A DNA stretch of 64,000 nucleotides from Branchiostoma lanceolatum (taxonomy: Eukaryota > Chordata > Leptocardii > Amphioxiformes > Branchiostomatidae), in the NCBI RefSeq assembly GCF_035083965.1, contig NC_089724.1:19672974-19736973 (forward strand), read 5' to 3'. The position numbers and the translations under genes were made by a program. Of the stretch, positions 462 through 60,052 are shown piece by piece. Under the pieces are notes generated by a model. It ran no database searches. It saw only the letters and a list, made by a program, of their open reading frames with translations, and was not told the origin of the DNA. The stretch's first letter is position 1. Every line of letters starts with the position of its first letter.

Positions 462-3400
462 TTAGATTGGTCTAGGCAAGGTCGTCACATCTGTCAGGCA
501 CTCGTCATAGCTGGTCTGGTAACTTTCATTAGGCTTCAGTAGCACACAGCAGGTTGGGCGCTTGGACCCCGCTGCCTCTCCAAGATCCTGGAAAAACATC
601 AACAACAATATCAAACCTTTACTCTGCCTACTTCCAGAATTACCCAACATATTAGTTCATGACACGGATAACACTAGTAATGAACTGACCTTGTTTACTC
701 CTAGTTCACTATGCAAGCTTCACAAGGTAAAAGATATGATAGTGAAGTTTTTTTATAGCTCGATTGCACAGCAAGTTTTGTGACAGTGTTAACCTTGTTG
801 TGACACAACTGGGGCATTCAGCATCCTCCCCAAACATACCTGTTTGGCTGGCACATAGCAGTACGGAATCTTGGCATCTTCACACACAACAGGTAGATGG
901 CAGTACACTTCTATGGGCGTTGTGTCACCAGCAATCAGTACAATTCTGTAACACAGAATGCAAAGTTAAATGTATGGATACCAGTGTTCTCGCCAGCGCC
1001 CGTCCTCCCGTCATTTGACGGGTTTTTGTCGCTCATGACGGACAAAATTTTTGCCCAACCCGTCATTTTTAATGGACAAAAATTGGTGTGTGAAGATATT
1101 TAGACAGAGCTTAGAATTTTCAAAAACTCCAGAGGATCAGCGGAAGTTCGTGACGAGGGCAATCTAGATCATTTCTAATGCCCGCCGGCGACAACCCCAG
1201 CAACACACAGAGAGCGCCGTGGTGGTTGCTAGTAATATTTGGTGGCCGCCGAAAACTCGGTGTCATGCGCCGCCCTCCCCACTACAGTTTTGGCCGGTCG
1301 CATCAGGCTGACGTTTATTTCTGTTTTGTCCCTCTCGGTTCACCGTCAGTTATTGTCATCAAAGAAGCCTTAAAATTCAGAAATACTCCTATAGCTATCA
1401 GGCTTTCTGTAATCTGTGTAAACAGTATTAAAGTTCAAGCCGCGGCGGCTGAGTAACATGCTTTCCTCCCGCAAGAAATGGTAAACAGGCGTCAGATATT
1501 GTAATCCACCAATCACAGCGCACGTCTCCGTCGCATCAAGAAAAAACGACCAATGACATGCGAGTCTCGCTACTCGCGAGATTTCAGCTAAGCGTGAATT
1601 TGCGAGATGTTAGGGGAATGGCGGGAATCGCAGGGAATCGCAAGGATCGCACGACGAAGCGGCTGTTGGAAGGCTTGAATCGACAATTTTTGAACACATT
1701 CAGTGCAGTTACCGGAGAAATTAACCGTGGAAAACATGGTACAAAAAAATGGACGTCTTTATTGCGTTCTTTCTCAAAGTAGGGTGTCAAATTCCTCATT
1801 ATGTTCGATAATTACAGGGCGCATACGGAACAAGTGTTGAAAAGTTGTGTTTTATTTTTGCTGACTTATTCTGTGTGTATTTTTTGTAGGACGTAGCTGA
1901 TACGTAATAAAGTTTTGTTGTGCTAAATTTTATTTTCTTTGCCGATTGTATACAACATAGAAGTGCAGCTTGTGCGTGAAGTTGTGAACATTTGATATTT
2001 CCGCGATGACGGCACGCCTCCCCAAAAAATTAAGCCTGAAACCCTTGTGTAATTTTTCACCGAAAGAGATGTCATTAAACTAAGCTTATTTTACCAGGAA
2101 ATTTGCCCCTCAAAATGCAGGAAATAGCGTTTCAGAGGGTCTAGATCTCAAAATTTCCCGGGGGAGAATACCCCCAGACCCCCCTAGAATGGTCACGCCT
2201 TCGGCGCTCGATATGTTCTTCCCCGACGCAAAATTGGAATGACGGGTAAAAATTTCAGGCTGGCGAGAACACTGATGGATACACACAATAATCCAGTGTG
2301 CATATGCATTGCTGTTTCAGTTAGATAAAGGCAATCTACGAACATAAAGACAATAGATAAGTTGTCAACTCTAAGTCTTACCCTCTCTCTCCCTTCTTGA
2401 TGAATTTCTGTACATCCCTGATGCCCTTTCTGATGTTTTTCTCTTTTGAGGCTGAAAAAAAGTAAAGCACAAGTTCAGAAGACATCCTGCTGGCAATGAG
2501 TGCCCAGTAAAACCAGCATAACAAAATAATCGCACACAGCATACATTCCAATAATTGCTACTGATTCCAGGCTACATAACACTTATTTATGTCAGAGTCT
2601 AAAGCTAGTTATCCTGGGCAAGCTGCCAATTTGTCCAACATCCTTTTACAAAATGGTGTACTAGTATCTGCACTTGGTCCAGGGTTGCTGAGTAAATGCA
2701 TGATCACATTTTGAACTAGTCAGCAAAATCTAGTGATCAACGATAACATTGGATTTGCTATAAATGTAATGGCAGAATTGAAGTAAAGCTAAAAGGCACC
2801 AAAATTTCTTTTGTTTTTTTATTGCATACCGGTGAACCTGCTCATGGCATAACTATAACGCACCAAGTTTGTACTGTTTGTAGAGGTTGCATATCCTGAC
2901 CAATTATTTTTGATCCATTCACACCGGGAAGGACCCCTAGTCTTTTTGATAAGTGTTCTAACTTCTTACATGTACATGGCTCTACTTAACATCCTATCCA
3001 AGGGATGTGCCTAAGCTAGGTACTCAATTTTACATTGAAGTGAGAATGTTCACAAGGGCAGGGTATCACAAGGGCACATCCACAAGGTCAGGGGATTCGA
3101 ACCAAGGACCTCTGTCTTCTGGCCCGAACACCCTACCATCATGCCACCCAACGCCACAATCAGGATATAAAAAGCGGACCTGTGTTTATTTTCTTTTTTC
3201 TTTGCAATAATTTTTTTGCATATGTAACAAGGTATTGATCGTCCTTACCTCGTATCCGTGGGCTCTACAGAAGGTGGAACTTCGTGATGGATTATGTTGT
3301 CGAACTCGAACCTAACTATCGCTAAGCGTGCACGCTCTAAACTAACCTGAACTGTAACAACTTGCTTGAACTTGCCCCAACGCAACGCAACTAACTTCAA

Positions 3401-6400
3401 CATCCGGGGCCTCGATCAGGGCTGACCCCTGACCTCCTAAACCTGGTTACACTGTCCTCCCTCCTATGAAGACACGTCCTCGTGTCTTAGAACCCCAATC
3501 TATCCGGGGGTCTCCCCCGGCGTCGGGAGCGGGTTGTAGTGGGTGCTGGAGCGTCACACACATTTTGACTCTGGTCTTCGTTCATTGAGCAGTACCACTC
3601 TCCGTCTGGATCTATCTCAGCAGCTTCATGTGCTGTTATCCTTCTCCAGCTGTCACAGGAGTCACACTGCACCCAATCCTGCAGCGACTCTGCGTCTGAG
3701 TCCTCAGCTGGAGTCTCCTCGGCAGGTAACTCATCTGTCAAAGAATCTTCTGCTCTCGCTCCTGTTTCCTCTTCCGGCTCTTGCACATGGTACTCCTTGA
3801 GCCTGTTGAAGTGCACTACGACCCTCTGTCGTCCTCCCACTCGCTGGACTCTATAGGTAACATCTGACATCCGTGTCACCACTCTGTAGGGTCCTTTCCA
3901 TTTTGGGAAGAACTTCTTGCTCAATCCTCTCGGGACGGCTGGAATAGACAGCCAAACTTGGTCCCCCACGGAGAAGCCTCCTCCGTGGCATTTTCTGTCA
4001 TACACATCCTTTTGGCGCCTGTGGGCCGTTTCCATGTTCTGTCTAGCTCTTCTGTAAGCCATATCCAATTCTTCTCTCACTCCCTGTGCCTGAACGTCTA
4101 TCCCTCCAGCTGGCTCTGGCCTGTCCACAGGCCACATGACGTCGGCTGGTACCCTTGCTTCCTCACCATAGGTGAGAAAGAATGGAGTGTAGTCTGTGCT
4201 GGAGTGGACACTGGTACGGTAGGCGAACAAGGCTGACTGAAGGCGGGCATCCCAGTCAGTGTGAGAGTCATTCACATACATGGTAAGAATCTGACAGACC
4301 GTCCTATTAAATCGCTCGACCATGCCATCCCCTTCTGGGTGATATGCCGTAGTTCTCGTCTTCTTAATTCCCAGCTCCTGGCATAATGTGTGGACAATCT
4401 GTGAATCAAAGTCTCTCCCTTGGTCACTGTGCAGCTGGTAGGGCACACCGAACCTGGTGATCCATGTATCAATCAATGCTCGCACCACGGTCGTCGCCTT
4501 TTGATCTGGTAACGCTACAGCTTCCACCCATTTCGTCATAGAATCAGATATTACCAATATGTGTTTATTTCCCTTCGGGGTCTCTGGGAAGGGTCCCATA
4601 AAGTCCATGGCCACCCTCTCCCACCGGAATCCTGGGGATGAGGGAACTAATGGTGCCCTTCTTCGCCGGGACCCTGTCTTCCTCTTGGCACACTCTGAAC
4701 ATCCCTTCACATGTAGCTCGACATCGGTAGCCATCCCGTACCAAAAGAACCGTTCTCGCATTCTTAGAAGGGTTTTATCCACCCCTAGGTGCCCACTCAG
4801 AATACCTCCGTGGCATTCCCTGAGCACCTGTTCCCTCAGAGTCTTTGGGACGACGAGCTGGAGCCGATAGGAGGTGTCTGTGTTATCAGCATACAATCTC
4901 CGGTACAACACCCCCTCCTTGACCTCCATCCTCCCTCGGTCGTTCCAATAGCGCAAGCCTTCCTTCCCGAGTGGAGCGGGTTGTTCAGTCTCGTCTCTGC
5001 TCTCCAACGCTAACAGCACTGGGCTTATCTCAGGATCGTCGACCTGCTGGTGCTTGATATCCTGACCGGCTGCAAAAGGTACAAGTAACTCAGGGGGGTC
5101 TGAAGCAACCTGGACTGACATCACGCCATCAGTCGGTGCATCTTCTAGGCCGCACTGTCTGCATGGGATCCTAGACAATCCGTCAGCATTGCCATGCTTC
5201 TTCCCAGCTCTGTGCTGAACCGTGAATGAGAATGACGCTAACGTCTCCAGCCAACGTGCTACTTGATTCTCAGGCTCCTTAAATGTCATCAGCCATTTTA
5301 GGGCGTGGTGGTCGGTACGAACAGTAAACTTGCAACCTAACAAATAGTGTCTGAAATGCCATACAGAGTTAACGAGAGCAAGCAGCTCTTTCCTGGTGGT
5401 GCAATACTTCCGTTCAGCTTTGCTCAGCGTACGACTGTGGTAGGCTATAGGGTGTTCACAACCGTTGACTTCTTGAGACAGTACAGCTCCCAGTCCCCGA
5501 TCTGACGCATCTGTGTCTAAGATGAATCTCTTGTGAAAATCGGGGAAGGCTAGGACCGGGGCTGTGGTGAGTTCTCTTTGTAACTGCCTGAAAACCTCCT
5601 TTTCCTCCTCTCCGAACTCAAAGTTCCCCTCTCGGTCGTTGGCCAGCTGGTATAGCGGTGCCGCGATACCTGAAAAGTTTCTCACAAACCTCCTGTAGTA
5701 AGAGCAAAAGCCCAAGAACGATCGGAGCTCTCCCCTGTTACTTGGGATCGGCCAGGTTTTGACGGCCTCTACTTTCTTTGGTTCTGTCTCTACCCCCTGT
5801 TCACTCACTACATGTCCCAGGAAAGACACCTTCTCTCTCAGCAGTTGACACTTGGTAGTCTTGACCTTCAGCCCCGCATCTTGTAGGCGCTGCAAGACAG
5901 CCTCAAGTCGATCCCAATGCTCTTCAAACGTACGGCCAAAGACTATAATATCATCGAGGTACACAAGACAGGAGGACCAGCAGAGTCCAGCCAAGACTAA
6001 GTCCATAAGCCGTTCAAATGTCGCGGGAGAGTTGCAAAGGCCCATGGGAAGGGTGTTGAACTCCCACAATCCTAGAGGTGTAGTGAACGCTGTCTTCTCT
6101 TTGCTACTTTCCTCTACTTCTACTTGGTGGTAACCGCTCACCAAATCAAGGGTACTGAAGAATTTTGCTCCACCCAAAGCGTCCAGGGCGTCGTCTATCC
6201 TAGGTAGGGGATATGCATCCTTCAGTGTACAGTCATTGAGCTTTCTGTAGTCCACACAGAATCGGGTTGACCCATCAGGTTTCTTTACCAAGACTACAGG
6301 AGCTCCCCAGGGAGAATGTGACTCCCTGATGATGCCTATCTCTCGCATGCCCTGGAGGCAGCGCGCCATCTCTTCTCGCTGGTGGGGTGAGTACCGTCTA

Positions 6401-9179
6401 GGTGCAAGTTTCACTGGCCTGGCACTACCGGTGTCAATCTTGTGTTTGACCTTGTCAGTTCTTCCCAAGTCCAGCGGTCCACGTGAGAACACATGTTGAA
6501 ATCGATCAACTGTCCTATACACACGCCGCCGCTGGTCTGTGCTCAAGTCCTTCCTGTCCAGACCAAGGTCTGACAGGATGCGATCCACCTCTCCTGCCTC
6601 TGGAGTAGAACTCTTGGTGGTCAGACCCCTCAGCGTCAACACTTGCTGTGCCCTTGTGCGTCTCTTGGTTCTACCTTTGCCCGCTGGCGGCAGTACAACT
6701 TCCTCAGCCTCCCCTCCATCTATAGGAGTCAGCTGTCCGACCTTGGAACCACGCCGTAATGTCACTGGCTCTGGCGACGTGTTGACCAGCCTTACTGGTA
6801 CGGACCCCTCGGTCGGCGTCACCACGGTTCTGGCACACACGACTTTGTCTTTCCCTTCCAAACTGTTGGGTTCGAACACAGCAGACAGAAAACCTCCCCA
6901 TCCAGGGTTTGCATCTTGTATGCATCCAGGTACGACGACTTCATGACGTCCCGGGAGGGTAACATCTTCCGCTAAACTCACCCTGCAGACATTGGGGCGA
7001 ATGGACATGACTTGCAAGGGGCATGGTCTGCCTCGGACAGAGATGGTCTCTCCTACGGTGTCAACTACGGCTCTAACTGACCTCATAAAGTCCATTCCCA
7101 GGATACATCTCTCCTGCAAGCCGTGAACGACATAGACCTTCCTCTTGATCTCCGCACCATGCACCCTTATCCTCACCTCCAGGGAACCGAGCACTTTAAG
7201 TACACCACCTCCCGCTGCTACGAAACTCTGCCAGCAATTCTTTAAGGGCACTTTACCACCCTTTTCCCAAACTGAGCTATCAACACAAGATGGCCCCACA
7301 CCTGAATCTACCAATGCATTCAAATTTTGATTCCACATGTCCAGATTTAAATATAACAGTTGCTTGATTTCCCTGGCTTCACAATCTTCATGATCATTGT
7401 CTTCACAATCCTCATTATCGTTGGCACAATCAGAAGAATCATTCAACTTACTGTTCTGGGGTGACTCCTTAATATGCGCTAGTGTGTCACCCCCCACCCC
7501 AGCGCCCCCTAGTTTGACGACTTCTTCGGGCTGGGGCAGTTCCTTGCCATGTGCGCACGGCCACCACAGTTGAAACAGATGTAGTCCCTACCACCAGCCT
7601 TGTTTCCGTTGTTGTTGTTGTTGTCATTTCCCGGGTTGCTTGGGGTACGAACTCCGGCGTCGCTCTTCGTTACTGCGTCTTCAATTCGGGTCAGGCAACC
7701 CGCCATGCCCTCTACTCGGCTCTCCAGCCGGGCCACCCTTTCTTCTAGCTCCTCCTCCCTGCTAGTGCTAGCGACCATGTGCACCGTAGTGCTCTCCGTA
7801 CCCTCCAGCTGTGCTGCGGCACGGCGGATGTCTCTCAGGTTATTCGGCCGAGGGAAAATGTCGCCCAACCTCTCTGCCAGCCTAGAGGGCTGCAGACCGG
7901 TAATGAAATAATTGACCCCCATCTTCTCCCTCTCCGCTACATCTGTTTTGGGGTGCCCGTACTGCAACAATGACCTCAGTCGCATTTCATAGTCGAGTAG
8001 TGTCTCTCCTACCTTCCTGTGGAAGTTCAGTAGCTCGTCGAGCGAGGTTTGCTTCCTTTCCCCGGCCCCAAACCTGTCTGATAACACCGTGTGCAAATTT
8101 TCCACGTCATTTGTCAACTTGTCACCCAAACTCTCGGCGTACTCTAGAGCCGGACCCTCCAAATGTAGCATGAGGTACATTGGGTAACTTTCTACTTTCC
8201 ATTGTTGCAATCTGGCCAGGCGAGCAAACTGCCTATACCACGAGCCGAAATTTAGGTTACGGCCTGAGAACTTGGCGAGTTTGATCTCTGCACGTGTCGC
8301 CGCCATTTTGAGTTTCTTTGTTCTTTGTCCGACGCGCGTTCCAACGTCTTCTGTTCACTTCTGACACCAATGTAACAAGGTATTGATCGTCCTTACCTCG
8401 TATCCGTGGGCTCTACAGAAGGTGGAACTTCGTGATGGATTATGTTGTCGAACTCGAACCTAACTATCGCTAAGCGTGCACGCTCTAAACTAACCTGAAC
8501 TGTAACAACTTGCTTGAACTTGCCCCAACGCAACGCAACTAACTTCAACATCCGGGGCCTCGATCAGGGCTGACCCCTGACCTCCTAAACCTGGTTACAC
8601 TTATAACGTTAACTGTTCAGTCTTGGTTGAAACAAAAGTCATGACGTTGATTAGATAATTTTCCAAATCGGTATCATAGCTACCTTGAGGATAAGACGAT
8701 AAGAGTGCATTACAATTTTTCTGAGAAAAAGTCTTCAAGGAATAGGAGCGAATATGTGTCAGTGGGAGGGGGGCGCAAAACACTTCTCACGAAATTTTGT
8801 TGCAAAGGAAACAAAAGTAACGGAGACGAACGTGAAGACTCTGGAATCAGACTAAATTTTCGAAAAAGTTGGTATCAAATTTATAGGCGCGTCTCCTTTA
8901 ACCAAGGACATTATACATTGTCCTTGCTTTTACATGATAAAGTGAAGTTGCCAGCACGTGCTTGCATAAACCAAAATGTCTGCCAAGCCGACCAGTCCTA
9001 CCTTTTTTCACGGTCTTGTACAACCTTTTCGTGAGTTTCCTGGCCGCTAAAGGACTGGCTATGGGGTTAACCCGTGTAGCCAGAACTTCGTAGGCTCTCT
9101 CCCTGTCCTCCTTGTTCCCCCCTGACTCCTCCTGATCCTCCTTTTCTTCGGTCTTGTCTTTCTTCGGAGTCTTCGCCAT
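462..9179 (-). CDS. NHP2: H/ACA ribonucleoprotein subunit 2 (NHP2), 4 coding exons
   Basis: NHP2 is the L7Ae-family core protein of H/ACA snoRNPs. It binds guide RNA in the nucleolus and Cajal bodies and supports rRNA pseudouridylation and telomerase RNP assembly. Coding exons on the minus strand are 9179-9002, 2451-2382, 945-840 and 587-462. All borders are GT..AG and phases join (1, 2, 0), giving 159 residues against about 153 in human. Visible signatures: a Lys/Glu-rich N-terminus, [30 protein letters not shown], the L7Ae core [15 protein letters not shown], and the C-terminal AAGSKRPTC followed by YDECL, which closely match the family. The start is the ATG at 9179, which gives the family's usual length. 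Introns 1 (6.55 kb) and 2 (1.44 kb) are swollen by transposons. The gene is divergent from ATG101, with starts 530 bases apart. Confidence 0.95.
982..2274. mobile_element. Non-autonomous hAT-type DNA transposon in NHP2 intron 2
   Basis: The ends are a perfect 16-base terminal inverted repeat, CAGTGTTCTCGCCAGC and its complement. They are flanked by a perfect 8-base duplication ATGGATAC (974-981 and 2275-2282), the hAT hallmark. The 1293-base interior has no transposase-like frame. Near the right end is a short run (about 2115-2200) ending in C-rich CCCCCAGACCCCCCTAG, which I believe recurs in hAT 3' regions. Inside the left end, the palindrome CCCGTCATTTGACGGG is shared with the element at 28325-29240. 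It fills nearly all of NHP2 intron 2: removing it plus one duplication copy would leave about 135 bases. Confidence 0.88.
3223..3451 (-). repeat. 3' LTR of the Ty3/gypsy element
   Basis: A 229-base direct repeat of 8371-8599 with no difference that I could find by eye. It begins TGTAACCAGG and ends TTGTTACA on the minus strand, i.e. the usual TG..CA ends. I see no AATAAA signal in it. Confidence 0.93.
3452..3465 (-). other. Polypurine tract of the LTR element
   Basis: On the minus strand the 14 bases just upstream of the 3' LTR read AGGAGGGAGGACAG. This is the expected position and composition for the plus-strand DNA synthesis primer of an LTR retroelement. Confidence 0.75.
3487..7497 (-). 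CDS. Pol polyprotein with C-terminal CW-type zinc finger
   Basis: Frame of 1336 residues counted from a GTG at 7497, but the frame is open upstream into gag, so it is probably made as a Gag-Pol product. Domains: aspartic protease (DSG at 64-66, ILGMDF near 132-137); reverse transcriptase (about 360-560, YLDD at 513-516); RNase H (about 650-780, DTDASD near 661); integrase with His/Cys zinc module (H896, H903, C933, C936) and catalytic D965, D1025 and E1061; GPY/F module (KGPYRV near 1201). After an acidic linker comes W1275-V-Q-C1278-x2-C1281-x2-W1284-R-R, then WYC1303-S-M-N and C1314. This is the CW zinc-finger pattern known from histone H3K4 methyl-lysine readers. A basic tail follows. No stop or frameshift interrupts the frame, so the element may be competent. 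Confidence 0.93.
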   Translation of the reverse strand: MGGDTLAHIKESPQNSKLNDSSDCANDNEDCEDNDHEDCEAREIKQLLYLNLDMWNQNLNALVDSGVGPSCVDSSVWEKGGKVPLKNCWQSFVAAGGGVLKVLGSLEVRIRVHGAEIKRKVYVVHGLQERCILGMDFMRSVRAVVDTVGETISVRGRPCPLQVMSIRPNVCRVSLAEDVTLPGRHEVVVPGCIQDANPGWGGFLSAVFEPNSLEGKDKVVCARTVVTPTEGSVPVRLVNTSPEPVTLRRGSKVGQLTPIDGGEAEEVVLPPAGKGRTKRRTRAQQVLTLRGLTTKSSTPEAGEVDRILSDLGLDRKDLSTDQRRRVYRTVDRFQHVFSRGPLDLGRTDKVKHKIDTGSARPVKLAPRRYSPHQREEMARCLQGMREIGIIRESHSPWGAPVVLVKKPDGSTRFCVDYRKLNDCTLKDAYPLPRIDDALDALGGAKFFSTLDLVSGYHQVEVEESSKEKTAFTTPLGLWEFNTLPMGLCNSPATFERLMDLVLAGLCWSSCLVYLDDIIVFGRTFEEHWDRLEAVLQRLQDAGLKVKTTKCQLLREKVSFLGHVVSEQGVETEPKKVEAVKTWPIPSNRGELRSFLGFCSYYRRFVRNFSGIAAPLYQLANDREGNFEFGEEEKEVFRQLQRELTTAPVLAFPDFHKRFILDTDASDRGLGAVLSQEVNGCEHPIAYHSRTLSKAERKYCTTRKELLALVNSVWHFRHYLLGCKFTVRTDHHALKWLMTFKEPENQVARWLETLASFSFTVQHRAGKKHGNADGLSRIPCRQCGLEDAPTDGVMSVQVASDPPELLVPFAAGQDIKHQQVDDPEISPVLLALESRDETEQPAPLGKEGLRYWNDRGRMEVKEGVLYRRLYADNTDTSYRLQLVVPKTLREQVLRECHGGILSGHLGVDKTLLRMRERFFWYGMATDVELHVKGCSECAKRKTGSRRRRAPLVPSSPGFRWERVAMDFMGPFPETPKGNKHILVISDSMTKWVEAVALPDQKATTVVRALIDTWITRFGVPYQLHSDQGRDFDSQIVHTLCQELGIKKTRTTAYHPEGDGMVERFNRTVCQILTMYVNDSHTDWDARLQSALFAYRTSVHSSTDYTPFFLTYGEEARVPADVMWPVDRPEPAGGIDVQAQGVREELDMAYRRARQNMETAHRRQKDVYDRKCHGGGFSVGDQVWLSIPAVPRGLSKKFFPKWKGPYRVVTRMSDVTYRVQRVGGRQRVVVHFNRLKEYHVQEPEEETGARAEDSLTDELPAEETPAEDSDAESLQDWVQCDSCDSWRRITAHEAAEIDPDGEWYCSMNEDQSQNVCDAPAPTTTRSRRRGRPPDRLGF
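7509..8306 (-). CDS. Gag protein of the Ty3/gypsy element
   Basis: 265-residue nucleocapsid/capsid precursor that packages element RNA. The N-terminal two-thirds is a helical capsid-like region beginning [15 protein letters not shown], with F-W-Q residues typical of retrotransposon Gag. A predicted coiled segment rich in Glu/Arg lies near residues 180-210 and an Asn-rich linker near 225-235. A single CCHC zinc knuckle (C244, C247, H252, C257; spacing C-x2-C-x4-H-x4-C) sits at the end. The ATG at 8306 is the first in frame after the primer-binding site. Gag stops at 7509. Pol lies in the -1 frame relative to gag and is open across this stop. Confidence 0.9.
   Translation of the reverse strand: MAATRAEIKLAKFSGRNLNFGSWYRQFARLARLQQWKVESYPMYLMLHLEGPALEYAESLGDKLTNDVENLHTVLSDRFGAGERKQTSLDELLNFHRKVGETLLDYEMRLRSLLQYGHPKTDVAEREKMGVNYFITGLQPSRLAERLGDIFPRPNNLRDIRRAAAQLEGTESTTVHMVASTSREEELEERVARLESRVEGMAGCLTRIEDAVTKSDAGVRTPSNPGNDNNNNNGNKAGGRDYICFNCGGRAHMARNCPSPKKSSN
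8356..8369 (-). other. tRNA primer-binding site
   Basis: One base inside the 5' LTR the minus strand reads TGGTGTCAGAAGTG. This is complementary to the 3' end of animal tRNA-Leu of the CAA anticodon type (CACTTCTGACACCA), so tRNA-Leu is the likely reverse-transcription primer. The tRNA match is from memory of that tRNA family. Confidence 0.7.
8371..8599 (-). repeat. 5' LTR of the Ty3/gypsy element
   Basis: Upstream copy of the 229-base LTR in element orientation, apparently identical to 3223-3451. It should hold the element promoter. I see no clear TATA box in it. Confidence 0.93.
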
Positions 9180-9709: not shown

Positions 9710-10844
9710 ATGAACGCGAGAACGCAGACATTTGAACTGTCCTGTGAGGGTCGGCAGATCGAAGAGGTCCTGTTGGGAATCTTCCACACCATTCTTTTCC
9801 ATAGAACGACTGGAAAATTCCACTACAAAAAGGAGGGTACCTACTCCATAGGGACAGTAGGTGTTGTTGACGCTGACTGCGACTTTGTTGACTTCACTTA
9901 CGTTCGCTGTGACTCCGACGAGCTCGATCGTAGCCTGAAGCGTGAAGTAGCGTCGTTCAAGGATGCCCTGAGGAAGGTCGAGGGCCCCTGTGAGGGACAA
10001 ATCTCCTTGGAGTTTTTCCAGAAGAAGCGTAGTCGGTGGCCATTTCCTGCAGAGAGTATCCCTTGGGAGGTATGACGTCATCTTTAGACATAATTTTGGA
10101 TTTGTACTGAATATCGTCGATCCTAACTTTTGGATTTGATCAAATCACAACACTCGGGGTGGTTTGTTCCTCATTTCATGCATTATCCTCATTATCATTC
10201 ATCATCACCGTCTTGTGGACAAAAGATTAAGTTCAATAATTATTGTGTTTCTATTCTTACTCAATCTTAGATTAAGACAAGTGCATGCATGGTTTGATTT
10301 TATGAATATGTAAAGCTGTGGCCTGTAATGCTATGACTAGTATTCAATGTATTTATTTTTTTTACATTTGCAGTGAAATATATTCAAGAATGCATCACCT
10401 AGCTTGGCACATGAAAAAACTGTGCACAAGAATATGCAACTAAGGTCATCCACAGGGACAGGTTTTGTCTGACAATTGATTTAAGTTTATACATTTACAT
10501 TTGTTTGAATTCTGCCATTCATGTTAACCACTGCTTTTCCATATTAGGTGTGGACACTGAAGCTGAATGTCATAGACCTGAGCAGTGAGAGTGAGCGCCA
10601 GATCTGCCGGGAGAAGGTGGGTGAGAAGCTCGCAGAGAAAGTCATCTGCATTGCAGAAGCGATGAATCGACATGAGTTCCTCCCAAAGAACCCAAACGAG
10701 CCGGACTTGGACAACGTGTTTGACACCAGCTTCCCAGACGTGCAGCCCTATCTCCACAAGATCACCTTTGAGACTGGGAGCTCCAGCGGGGCAAACGTGG
10801 GCCTGACTGTCAGGAGACTCTTCAGAGACACTCTTGCCATATGA
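9710..10844 (+). CDS. ATG101: Autophagy-related protein 101 (ATG101), 2 coding exons
   Basis: ATG101 is the HORMA-fold partner of ATG13 in the ULK1 autophagy-initiation complex; it stabilises ATG13 and recruits downstream factors at the phagophore. Exons 9710-10069 and 10548-10844 join in phase 0 and give 218 residues, the human length. Conserved stretches include [15 protein letters not shown] [65 protein letters not shown] and VDNVFDT-like LDNVFDTSF. The WF finger falls at W110 and F112, exactly as in human. An in-frame ATG lies two codons upstream (9704), but the start at 9710 (MNART) matches the family N-terminus and length. Single intron of 478 bases. Confidence 0.95.
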
Positions 10845-57291: not shown

Positions 57292-60052
57292 CTAGCATCT
57301 CTCAAACACCTTGTACAGGTCCGGCAGGTTGGCGATCTGCAGGACACTTCTGTCTTCTGCAAATGTCTTGGGAGGCAGCAGGGAGGAACGGAAGGCAGGA
57401 AACAATGCATGCTCAACTGTCCACTTCCAGGACTTTGAATCCTCACTGGTTGAGGAAACACTAGAACTGATGGCATAGAAGAGCCCACACTCTCTGGCAA
57501 AGGTCTGGAAGCAATCCCTCTCACTGTCCCAGTCAACTTCTGTTGCTAGTCTCAGCACAAACATTGGCAGACCTTCTAATGGTGGGATGTAGTTTTCCAA
57601 AAGCAAAGGCAGGGTGCAGAGGTTTCCTTCTGAGTCGATTTGTAAAGAAAAGTAGTCTAGAAGCATTGGTGCTTTCTGCTGCAAGAAGGTCACAATGTAC
57701 TGTGCCAGCTCTTCCTTAGACCCATCCTCTTCAGTCCAACCACTCTCTTCACTATCTAAAGCTAACATGGCCAGCTCATGGATTGGCGCTGGCTCTGACA
57801 GACGAAGCATGCCAAAGTTTCCAAAGTCAAACAGAGCCAACTGGTAGAACAGCTCCTGGCTCAAACGGCGTGTGCTGACAAGGTAGAGCTTGGTTTGGTG
57901 CTGGACAAGAGCTCGTGTTGGATCCACACAGCCCACAAACTTCAGCTGTGTCACCATCTCCCTCAGCCCTGTGTGCATGGTGTCTTTGATCTCCTGATGA
58001 AGGGCCAGGACACTGGTTAGAGTGATGGGACGCCGTTGTGTAGATTTATTTCCTTCACCTCTGCTCTCTTCTTCTGCAAAGGACATTAAAAAATACAGGC
58101 AAAGTCACAAGAAGCCAGGTAATGACGTAGTTAAGGACAAGAAGCTGTTTCCAACAACATTTGACTACAAGTCTATAAGAAAAATGTACAAAAACATACC
58201 GCCAATTATTGTTTCCTCAGATTCCTCCTCTACCCCTTCCTCTCGTGGACGCTTTCTCTGATTTTGGTGCTCATCTGTTGCCATGGGCACATCAGCAGTG
58301 TCAGCATCTGTCATCTTGGATGTGGTTGGTACAGCAAGATCAACTTCTGCAACTGATGTTTTTGTAGAAACACTGGGAGAAGAGATGATAGGATCTTCTG
58401 GTTTCTTCAGGAATGCTTCAAGTTTCTGGTCCCTGTGATCTGTTCTGACTAGCTGATGGGCATACGTCTTGGAGGATATGCTTGAAGAAGTTTCGCTGCT
58501 AGTAACCTCTGTTACAGGTACTACAACTCCAGGTAGGAGAGCCTGTGGAAAGGAGACAACTTGTCATCACAAAAATTAAAAGTCACACTGACATCAATTC
58601 AGACGATCATCTAAAGTGCTTCATAGCTCTAGCGTACAGTATTTCTTTGTTTCAGAGGCAATTTTAAAGTGTTCTTTTCCTATTCTGTTCTCTGAGCTTT
58701 AATAGCGGTTATCTAAGCTGGTCGGAAGATCTCTACATATCTTTAAACTCTTGTGCTATTATTCATGGATATGTGAATCATATTACTGTAAATATTGACC
58801 CCGAAATGGCGGTGATAACGTAACATGAATAGGCTCCAAATAACACCAACACATGTACTGACCTGAGTAAAGAATGTGCGAGATGAGTTACATCCCAGCA
58901 AACTTGTCTCCACTTGCTTCTGTATTGCCTCAATAATCACATCCTCATGAAGGAAGTGCACCTCATGTTTGGTGGGGTGGACGTTCACATCAACATGGGA
59001 CGGCATGATCTCCACACTCATGTAAACAAATGGATGCATGTTTTTGGGAAGGTAGGCAGAGTACACGGCCTCCAGGGCTTTTCGCAAGGCGGTGGAGTCT
59101 ACCAGGCGATGGTTGATGAAGAGAAGAAAGATGAACTTCTTGGTGGAATAGTTTGCATTGGAGATGTGACCTTTCATTGAAAAAGCCAGCCTGCTGTCGT
59201 TGCACTTGACCTCGATCAGCTCCCGTGCGACTGCGGGGCCGTACACTGTGCGGATGTTATCTATGGTGGAGGAAGTAGGGGAGGTTCGCAGCTCTGCCAT
59301 GCTCTCTCCCTGCTTCTTCAGCGTGAATCCCACACCAGCATTATGGATGGCATACCGGCTCATGACCTCGGCGACCTTTGCATGCTCCTCTCCTGGGCTC
59401 CTCATGGCCTTGCGTCGTGATGGAACATTATAGAACAAGTCCTCTACAGTAATTTGTGTGCCTTGGTTCCCAGCACATGGTTTTGGGGTTGCCAGCGGCT
59501 TACCATCTGAGTAGCCAGCTTTGTATGCACATTTAGAATCGGCTGTTCTTGTCACTATTGTAACGTGGGCCACGTGGCTGATACTGGCAAGCGCTTCTCC
59601 TCGGAAACCATAGGTGGCGATGGATGTCAAGTCTTCGAACTTCTGCAGCTTGCTGGTGGTGAAGCGCTCACACACAATGTCCATGTCTTCACGCCTGATA
59701 CCTGTTCCATTGTCCTGGATCTGTAACAGCTTCAGACCACCTGACTTCACAACAACCTGTAGGAACATTCAACAGAACAGTGTCTTATCTTACTAACATG
59801 ACAGAGCACATAGAAATAAATAGAAAGAAGGAAATGGCTTCTCACAAGAAAATTTGCTTCTCATGTGAACACCAACATCAATGACACAAAATGAATTTGA
59901 ACTTCTGTGCGGTTTACCTGAATGGCAGATGATTTAGCATCCAGACAGTTCTCGAGCATCTCCTTCACAGCGTTGGCTGGTCTGACTATGACTTCTCCTG
60001 CTGCAATACGGTTCACAACCGTCTCCTCCAACCGGCGAATTGTTCCTGCCAT
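57292..60052 (-). CDS. MLH1: DNA mismatch repair protein MLH1, 4 coding exons
   Basis: MLH1 is the MutL-homolog ATPase that pairs with PMS2, MLH3 or PMS1 to couple mismatch recognition to strand cutting and in meiotic crossing over. Exons on the minus strand: 60052-59918, 59756-58863, 58542-58200, 58073-57292. Phases join (0, 0, 1), giving 717 residues (human 756). GHKL ATPase motifs: ENCLDA at 34-39, DNGTGI at 60-65, YGFRGEAL at 94-101, then [15 protein letters not shown]. The variable linker in exon 3 keeps [18 protein letters not shown] and a basic RKRPRE. The C-terminal dimerisation domain ends in the invariant KVFERC. The N-terminus lacks the SFV residues of human (starts [20 protein letters not shown]). 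The whole region of human exons 2-11 or so is one 894-base exon here. Confidence 0.96.

What the first reader, a model, noticed from the sequence alone, without database searches (positions are those of the whole stretch)
3487..3810. Ty3/gypsy integrase carrying a C-terminal CW-type zinc finger
After the GPY/F module and an acidic linker, the pol frame ends in W-V-Q-C-x2-C-x2-W-R-R ... W-Y-C-x2-N ... C (residues 1275-1314) plus a basic tail. The four Cys and the two pocket tryptophans of CW domains, known H3K4 methyl-lysine readers (ZCWPW1, MORC and ASHH2 families), are present. Chromoviruses use a chromodomain in the same place to steer insertion to H3K9-methylated chromatin. A CW reader would instead point to H3K4-marked promoters or enhancers. 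The copy sits in an intron of an active housekeeping gene, about 600 bases from its start codon. I know of no described CW-bearing retrotransposon lineage, but have not searched.
Basis: partly seen in the sequence, partly recalled or inferred. Interest (0 to 1): 0.88.

Follow-up and report, generated by a model that had tools for sequence, protein, structure and literature searches.

The report
Jumping gene with histone-reader tail
A lancelet (amphioxus) retrotransposon carries, fused to the end of its integrase, a CW zinc finger of the kind that host proteins use to read methyl marks on active chromatin, which would be a natural way of steering where it inserts, though the steering itself is untested.

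Summary
The intact pol ORF of a young-looking Ty3/gypsy element (identical 229-bp LTRs; window 3223-8599, minus strand) ends in a genuine zf-CW domain (Pfam PF07496, E = 1.8e-12, 47.5 bits against a cut-off of 27.5; best PDB kin ZCWPW2 and ASHH2). All four zinc cysteines and both pocket tryptophans (W1275, W1284) are present, with the W-W-W spacing of Arabidopsis ASHH2. The domain lies in the linker between the GPY/F module and a C-terminal PPxRL-type motif that 36 of 101 CW-less relatives also carry, so it looks inserted there. A second, slightly different copy (or allele) in Branchiostoma lanceolatum has the identical domain. No other CW-bearing pol was seen: of 2428 integrase relatives 120 were listed, and only that one has it. 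The H3K4 interpretation is plausible, not shown: the C-terminal third side of the methyl-lysine cage is not recognisable, the methyl state cannot be predicted, the structure models are weak, and one insertion (NHP2 intron 1, 580 bp from the ATG) cannot show targeting. My searches of an open-access library listed nothing on CW-bearing retrotransposons. Verdict: new variant of a known kind, a chromovirus-like modular integrase with a different reader.

The parts
3223..8599 (-). Ty3/gypsy LTR retrotransposon, 5377 bp, inside NHP2 intron 1 in the gene's orientation
   Evidence: LTR pair, gag and pol ORFs, Pfam domains
8371..8599 (-). 5' LTR, 229 bp, TG...CA
   Evidence: identical to 3' LTR over 229 of 229 bp
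3223..3451 (-). 3' LTR, 229 bp, TG...CA
8352..8369 (-). putative primer binding site, TGGTGTCAGAAGTGAACA, one base after the 5' LTR; tRNA not identified
   Evidence: sequence; assignment is inference
3452..3465 (-). putative polypurine tract AGGAGGGAGGACAG before the 3' LTR
   Evidence: sequence; assignment is inference
7509..8306 (-). gag ORF, 265 aa: PNMA-like capsid match (just under its cut-off) and CCHC zinc knuckle
   Evidence: Pfam PF14893 E 1.6e-5, 24.8 bits against 25; PF00098 E 3e-4, 21.2 against 20.8
3487..7497 (-). pol ORF, 1336 aa plus stop, in the -1 frame relative to gag, its frame open upstream to 7587 so that it overlaps gag
7060..7362 (-). aspartic protease, residues 46-146, DSG at 64
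   Evidence: Pfam PF09668 E 3.1e-6; motif
5809..6288 (-). reverse transcriptase, residues 404-563, YLDD at 513
   Evidence: Pfam PF00078 E 1.6e-32
5230..5613 (-). RNase H, residues 629-756
   Evidence: Pfam PF17919 and PF17917
4675..4851 (-). integrase H2C2 zinc domain, residues 883-941
   Evidence: Pfam PF17921 E 2.9e-20
4315..4617 (-). integrase core, residues 961-1061, D965 ... D-35-E1061
   Evidence: Pfam PF00665 E 1.1e-12, 961-1054; motif
3796..3894 (-). GPY/F (Integrase_p58_C), residues 1202-1234
   Evidence: Pfam PF22938 E 2e-14
3679..3795 (-). acidic linker, residues 1235-1273
   Evidence: composition (counted on 1233-1273)
3547..3675 (-). CW-type zinc finger, residues 1275-1317: zinc Cys 1278, 1281, 1303, 1314; pocket Trp 1275 and 1284; core Trp 1301
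   Evidence: Pfam PF07496 E 1.8e-12; PDB phmmer; positions
3490..3546 (-). basic C-terminal tail, residues 1318-1336, with PPDRL, a motif of the kind shared with CW-less relatives
2452..9001 (-). NHP2 intron 1 (GT...AG), which holds the element; NHP2 ATG at 9179
   Evidence: splice signals and translation; NHP2 exon 3 matches H/ACA RNP subunit 2, E 1.3e-13

Best explanation
This is a recently active Ty3/gypsy retrotransposon of amphioxus (most likely Branchiostoma lanceolatum) whose integrase gained a host-type CW domain inside the flexible linker between the GPY/F module and an older basic tail. The domain most likely folds around zinc, holds the N-terminal tail of histone H3 along its first strand and puts methylated (perhaps also unmodified) lysine 4 between W1275 and W1284, thus tethering the pre-integration complex to H3K4-methylated chromatin near active promoters or enhancers, in the way that chromodomains tether chromovirus integrases to H3K9-methylated chromatin. 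Shown here: the domain, its residues, its reading frame, its place, a second copy (or allele), absence in the listed relatives. Inferred: zinc binding, H3 binding, methyl state, targeting.
For: Pfam zf-CW E 1.8e-12. The best PDB kin, ZCWPW2 and ASHH2, belong to CW proteins solved as histone readers; the 21 CW rows also include MORC2, which reads no histone. Both pocket Trp present: MORC2, with Thr496 for the floor Trp, does not bind H3K4me3 (PMC5811534 passages), and W410/W419 of MORC3 cage a lysine (PMC10612106 passages). W spacing 1275/1284/1301 equals ASHH2 865/874/891 (PMC9043364 passages). Foldseek of the model: the five best of 61 matches are CW domains, ASHH2/SDG8 first, though weak. 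The element looks recent: identical LTRs, intact gag and pol, intact DSG, YLDD, HHCC and D,D-35-E. P0001, with 14 substitutions over about 1160 comparable pol residues outside 873-912, is unchanged over residues 1271-1336, hence the CW. Precedent for the mechanism: fusing the H3K4me3-binding ING2 PHD finger to the LEDGF integrase-binding domain redirected HIV-1 integration towards start sites and expressed genes (PMC8149907 passages); the MAGGY chromodomain binds H3K9me2/3 (PMC3350952 passages). The copy lies 580 bp inside NHP2, whose start faces that of ATG101.
Against: No cage-closing residues recognisable after C1314. Models have mean pLDDT 52.5 and 54.2 and Foldseek gives no match with E up to 1e-3. 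Only two sequences of the family seen, possibly alleles, so selection on the domain cannot be tested: 14 changes over about 1160 residues predict about 0.5 in a 43-residue domain. P0001 differs almost throughout residues 873-912 of the H2C2 region, so it may be a broken copy or a wrong gene model. One insertion is no test of targeting. CW domains can do other things: the MORC4 CW binds DNA and the MORC2 CW binds no histone peptide tested. The protease might cut the CW off the integrase; not tested.
Confidence: 0.55

Rival explanations
1. The CW domain is real and used, but not as an H3K4me tether: it binds DNA (as in MORC4), another host protein or the element's own integrase, and acts in intasome stability, nuclear entry or regulation.
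For: The MORC4 CW binds DNA through a basic patch opposite the histone site, and the MORC2 CW contacts an Arg-rich surface of its own protein (PMC7596504 and PMC5811534 passages). The tail after the CW is basic. The third side of the cage is not recognisable.
Against: Both cage Trp are kept, while the CW of MORC2, which does not read histones, has lost the floor Trp. MORC4 keeps both and binds DNA and H3K4me3, so the Trp do not exclude DNA binding.
Confidence: 0.22
2. The CW domain helps the element evade or exploit host silencing, for example by occupying H3K4-marked chromatin or competing with host CW proteins of the MORC kind, with no effect on target choice.
For: MORC1 silences transposons at H3K4me3-marked start sites and MORC2 is a HUSH effector (statements in PMC5811534 passages). 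Inference otherwise.
Against: The domain sits on the integrase, the protein that meets the target DNA, not in gag or a separate ORF.
Confidence: 0.08
3. A passenger: a captured host coding segment carried along by one young, small family, with no function.
For: Seen only in one species and two sequences; the family hangs on a long branch and its two nearest rows in the tree have no CW.
Against: All zinc and pocket residues are intact in both sequences although P0001 differs elsewhere; the PPDRL tail is kept downstream in frame. With two close sequences this is weak.
Confidence: 0.13
4. Chance or mis-assembly: the match is spurious or the reading frame joins two unrelated sequences.
For: No clear target-site duplication: CATA/CTTA match 3 of 4, GCATA/CTTAT 0 of 5, TGCATA/CTTATA 3 of 6.
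Against: Pfam E 1.8e-12; the same fusion stands in the separately annotated B. lanceolatum protein P0001, 99% identical over the last 162 residues.
Confidence: 0.02

Closest known systems
Chromoviruses (Ty3/gypsy with a C-terminal integrase chromodomain, e.g. MAGGY)
   Same: Ty3/gypsy pol; a small domain of a histone methyl-lysine reader class at the end of integrase
   Different: A CW zinc finger, not a chromodomain; expected mark H3K4 instead of H3K9; no chromodomain match by Pfam
Other Ty3/gypsy pols with an Integrase_p58_C end (e.g. P0012, P0019, P0009)
   Same: 49-52% identical RT-RH-IN in the eleven best-scoring rows other than P0001; same pol domains; PPxRL-type tail in 36 of 101 examined
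   Different: None of the 119 other rows listed has PF07496 in its Pfam list
CW domains of ASHH2/SDG8, ZCWPW2, ZCWPW1, MORC3, MORC4
   Same: Four Cys, two pocket Trp, core Trp; ASHH2 with the same W spacing
   Different: No recognisable counterpart of the cage-closing residues C-terminal to the last Cys; carried by a mobile element
Gammaretroviral integrase tail (MLV) that binds BET ET domains; artificial LEDGF-IBD/ING2-PHD fusions
   Same: Integrase steered to active start regions, by a C-terminal tail or by an H3K4me3 reader (PMC8149907 passages)
   Different: There the chromatin reader is a host or an engineered protein; here it would be part of the integrase itself

Membership tests
CW-type zinc finger (PF07496) | Profile match above the curated cut-off | tested here: met
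   47.5 bits against 27.5
CW-type zinc finger (PF07496) | Four zinc-binding Cys | tested here: met
   C1278, C1281, C1303, C1314; zinc binding itself not tested
CW-type zinc finger (PF07496) | CW fold | tested here: inconclusive
   pLDDT 52.5 and 54.2; Foldseek top five of 61 are CW domains, but the best E is 0.031
H3K4 methyl-lysine reader | Floor and right-wall Trp of the cage | tested here: met
   W1275 and W1284 (roles)
H3K4 methyl-lysine reader | C-terminal residues that close the cage (E301/T302/W303 of ZCWPW1; I915/L919/I921/Q923 of ASHH2) | tested here: not met
   [10 protein letters not shown] follows the last Cys; no counterpart by inspection; these residues differ between CW types, so this lowers but does not exclude reading
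H3K4 methyl-lysine reader | Binding to H3K4me peptides | not testable with these tools
   needs an assay
Ty3/gypsy (Metaviridae) | LTRs and gag, PR-RT-RH-IN order | tested here: met
Ty3/gypsy (Metaviridae) | Short target-site duplication around the copy (a feature of fresh insertions, from recall) | tested here: not met
   no 4-6 bp repeat without mismatch; does not bear on the family of the protein
Chromovirus | Chromodomain at the end of integrase | tested here: not met
   no chromodomain in the Pfam scan up to E 0.1

The most novel reading that the evidence does not exclude
A previously undescribed kind of LTR retrotransposon that reads H3K4 methylation with its own integrase and inserts into active promoter or enhancer chromatin: the euchromatic mirror image of the chromoviruses.
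Probability: 0.4. Interest if true: 0.85.

Novelty: new variant of a known kind. Interest (0 to 1): 0.7.

Why it matters
Chromodomains are the standard example of a histone reader captured by a retrotransposon integrase. A CW reader on another integrase would show that capture of chromatin readers has happened with an unrelated fold and, if it works, towards the opposite (active) mark. It also predicts a cost to the host, since such insertions would fall in promoters and first introns of active genes.

Tried and rejected
Other copies and the host genome: not held. Viral contigs and prokaryote genome contigs: 2 and 19 pattern matches, none encoding a relative; plasmids: no match. No second copy or fragment in the window. 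GC at third codon positions of the CW (0.48) lies within the range of the 27 other pol segments (0.39 to 0.68), so it says nothing about a recent capture. Donor gene: the best PDB kin are ZCWPW2 and ASHH2, but amphioxus CW proteins were not obtained, so the donor is open. Structure prediction, twice: low confidence. A slippery heptamer in the gag-pol overlap: none of the simple X-XXY-YYZ type with A or T in the second triplet. tRNA for the primer site: no tRNA in the window to compare with.

Literature: 10 of 10 searches. Those that bear on retrotransposons: 0 papers, 20 of 3,572 listed, none of the 20 with 'zinc finger CW', one plant SUV-gene paper, 20 of 174 listed, one with 'CW-type zinc finger' (a serum proteomics paper), 3 papers, 4 papers. 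No listed title describes a CW domain in a retrotransposon. Papers opened: passages of PMC12440569, PMC5811534, PMC7596504, PMC7314539, PMC10612106, PMC9043364, PMC8149907, PMC3350952; part 1 of 4 of PMC6338049; all others as listings. Most subscription journals and Repbase are not in the library, so this is no proof of absence.

Full report
What is there. On the minus strand, window 3223-8599 holds an LTR retrotransposon of 5377 bp. Its LTRs are 229 bp, start with TG and end with CA, and are identical at 229 of 229 positions. A putative primer site follows the 5' LTR after one base and a purine-rich tract precedes the 3' LTR. Gag (265 aa) has a CCHC knuckle and a PNMA-like capsid match just under its cut-off; pol (1336 aa) has protease, RT, RNase H, H2C2, integrase core and GPY/F in the Ty3/gypsy order. 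DSG, YLDD, HHCC and D,D-35-E are intact. Pol is in the -1 frame relative to gag and its open frame overlaps gag; no simple slippery heptamer was seen in the overlap. Flanking bases show no clear target-site duplication (3 of 4 for four bases, 0 of 5 for five, 3 of 6 for six), so the copy may have been altered by recombination or deletion after insertion, or the ends may be off.

The domain. Pfam places zf-CW at residues 1275-1317, E = 1.8e-12, 47.5 bits against a cut-off of 27.5. phmmer of the last 107 residues against the PDB lists 31 sequences up to E = 1; the first 21 are CW domains: ZCWPW2, ASHH2, MORC3, ZCWPW1, MORC2, MORC4. Residues: W1275, C1278, C1281, W1284, W1301, C1303, C1314. The distances W1275-W1284-W1301 (9 and 17) equal those of ASHH2 W865-W874-W891 (numbers from passages of PMC9043364). 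Two AlphaFold2 runs with six-row alignments gave mean pLDDT 52.5 and 54.2, with two short strands, as in the two-stranded sheet described for the MORC3 CW (passage). Foldseek with the second model gave 61 matches up to E = 10, none up to 1e-3; the first five are CW domains (E 0.031 to 0.20), the first three ASHH2/SDG8. A weak model, but consistent.

The pocket. In MORC2 the 'floor' Trp is Thr496 and H3K4me3 is not bound, while Trp505 is the 'right wall' (PMC5811534 passages). In MORC3 W410 and W419 cage the lysine (PMC10612106 passages). The element has both Trp. ZCWPW1 needs W256, E301, T302 and W303 (PMC7314539 passages), and ASHH2 closes the cage with a C-terminal helix (I915, L919) and I921, Q923. 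After its last Cys the element reads [10 protein letters not shown], with no counterpart that I can recognise (by inspection). So the floor and one wall are there, the third side is unknown, and whether me1, me2, me3 or unmodified K4 would be preferred cannot be said. The ASHH2-like spacing makes H3K4me1 as fair a guess as H3K4me3.

Relatives. A search with residues 1175-1336 gave 8 proteins up to E = 1e-3 of 766 candidates: P0001 (Branchiostoma lanceolatum, 'RTL1', 1417 aa, 99% identical over the whole query region, zf-CW in its Pfam list), four pols without CW, and three other CW proteins. The CW region alone (1266-1336) gave 5 of 53 candidates up to E = 10; P0001 is the only pol. These searches take only proteins of 735 to 2338 residues that share exact words, so shorter or distant cases are missed. 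The integrase region gave 2428 proteins up to 1e-20, of which 120 were listed; only P0001 has PF07496, and the others are at most 49% identical over that region. The 2308 not listed were not seen. The host is therefore most likely B. lanceolatum (inference). P0001 is a second copy or allele. Its gene model starts within gag and skips pol 1-134; residues 873-912 differ almost throughout (gene model or copy defect, not resolved); over the remaining about 1160 residues pol differs at 14 positions, and gag residues 43-265 at 5 plus one gap. The CW is unchanged and the nearest change is E1270G. That is too little to show selection.

Where it was inserted. I looked at tails after the [12 protein letters not shown] anchor in 127 rows (126 database proteins and the window); 24 had no anchor by my pattern (4 of these are the CW proteins that are not pols), and two of the other 103 are the window and P0001. 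The remaining 101, all without the CW pattern, have tails of median 90 residues. In 36 of 101 the last 40 residues hold PPxR[LYF] (x from a set of seven residues); shuffled tails give 0.68 on average, 4 at most. Two looser patterns give 52 of 101 against 7.8 (17 at most) and 71 of 101 against 32.0 (43 at most). The element ends [14 protein letters not shown] and has all three. So the CW domain stands between GPY/F and an older tail and was probably inserted into the linker rather than added at the end (inference). A FastTree of RT-RH-IN pieces (104 of the 121 relatives with a BLAST hit, P0001 left out, plus the window) puts the window on a long end branch (0.72, median 0.31), next to P0036 and P0087 (local support 94, under the program's 95 mark), neither with CW. 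A single gain in this lineage is the simplest reading; its date is open.

Genomic place. The element sits in intron 1 (2452-9001) of NHP2 in sense orientation; the 5' LTR end (8599) is 580 bp from the ATG (9179). ATG101 starts at 9710 on the other strand, so this is a head-to-head pair with a likely shared promoter (inference). That is the kind of place an H3K4 reader would choose, but it is one site.

How it most likely works. The CW tethers the integrase to the H3 tail on H3K4-methylated nucleosomes. Precedents: MAGGY chromodomain with H3K9me2/3 (PMC3350952 passages), and LEDGF-IBD fusions with the ING2 PHD finger that moved HIV-1 integration towards start sites and expressed genes (PMC8149907 passages). 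Shown: domain, residues, frame, place, second sequence. Inferred: fold, zinc, binding, targeting. I put 0.55 on the tether reading.

Known or new. Accessory domains of LTR retrotransposons named as well known in PMC6338049 (part 1 of 4 read) are the chromodomain and a DnaQ-like exonuclease. My searches list no paper on CW in a retrotransposon. The P0001 record shows that the fusion stands in public databases under the name RTL1; I saw no discussion of it. I rate it a new variant of a known kind: modular integrase with a histone reader, different reader.

Noticed in passing
974-2282: A 1.3-kb segment in NHP2 intron 2 with inverted 15-bp ends (CAGTGTTCTCGCCAG at 982, its complement at 2260-2274) flanked by an 8-bp duplication ATGGATAC (974, 2275): looks like a non-autonomous hAT-type DNA transposon (the hAT label is recalled).
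   Followed up: partly
3223-8599: Identical LTRs but no clear target-site duplication.
   Followed up: partly
9179 and 9710: NHP2 and ATG101 are head to head, about 530 bp between start codons.
   Followed up: no
57292-59768: Minus-strand coding stretches of MLH1 (PDB Mlh1 E 7.6e-153 for 58743-59765; MutL match far under its cut-off for 57295-58086).
   Followed up: no
relatives P0036 and P0087: The nearest relatives in the tree have long C-terminal extensions that look like envelope proteins by eye; Pfam names nothing there up to E 0.01.
   Followed up: no
relative P0111, residues 860-921: Weak Macro domain match (E 8.8e-4, under its cut-off) between RNase H and the integrase H2C2 domain.
   Followed up: no
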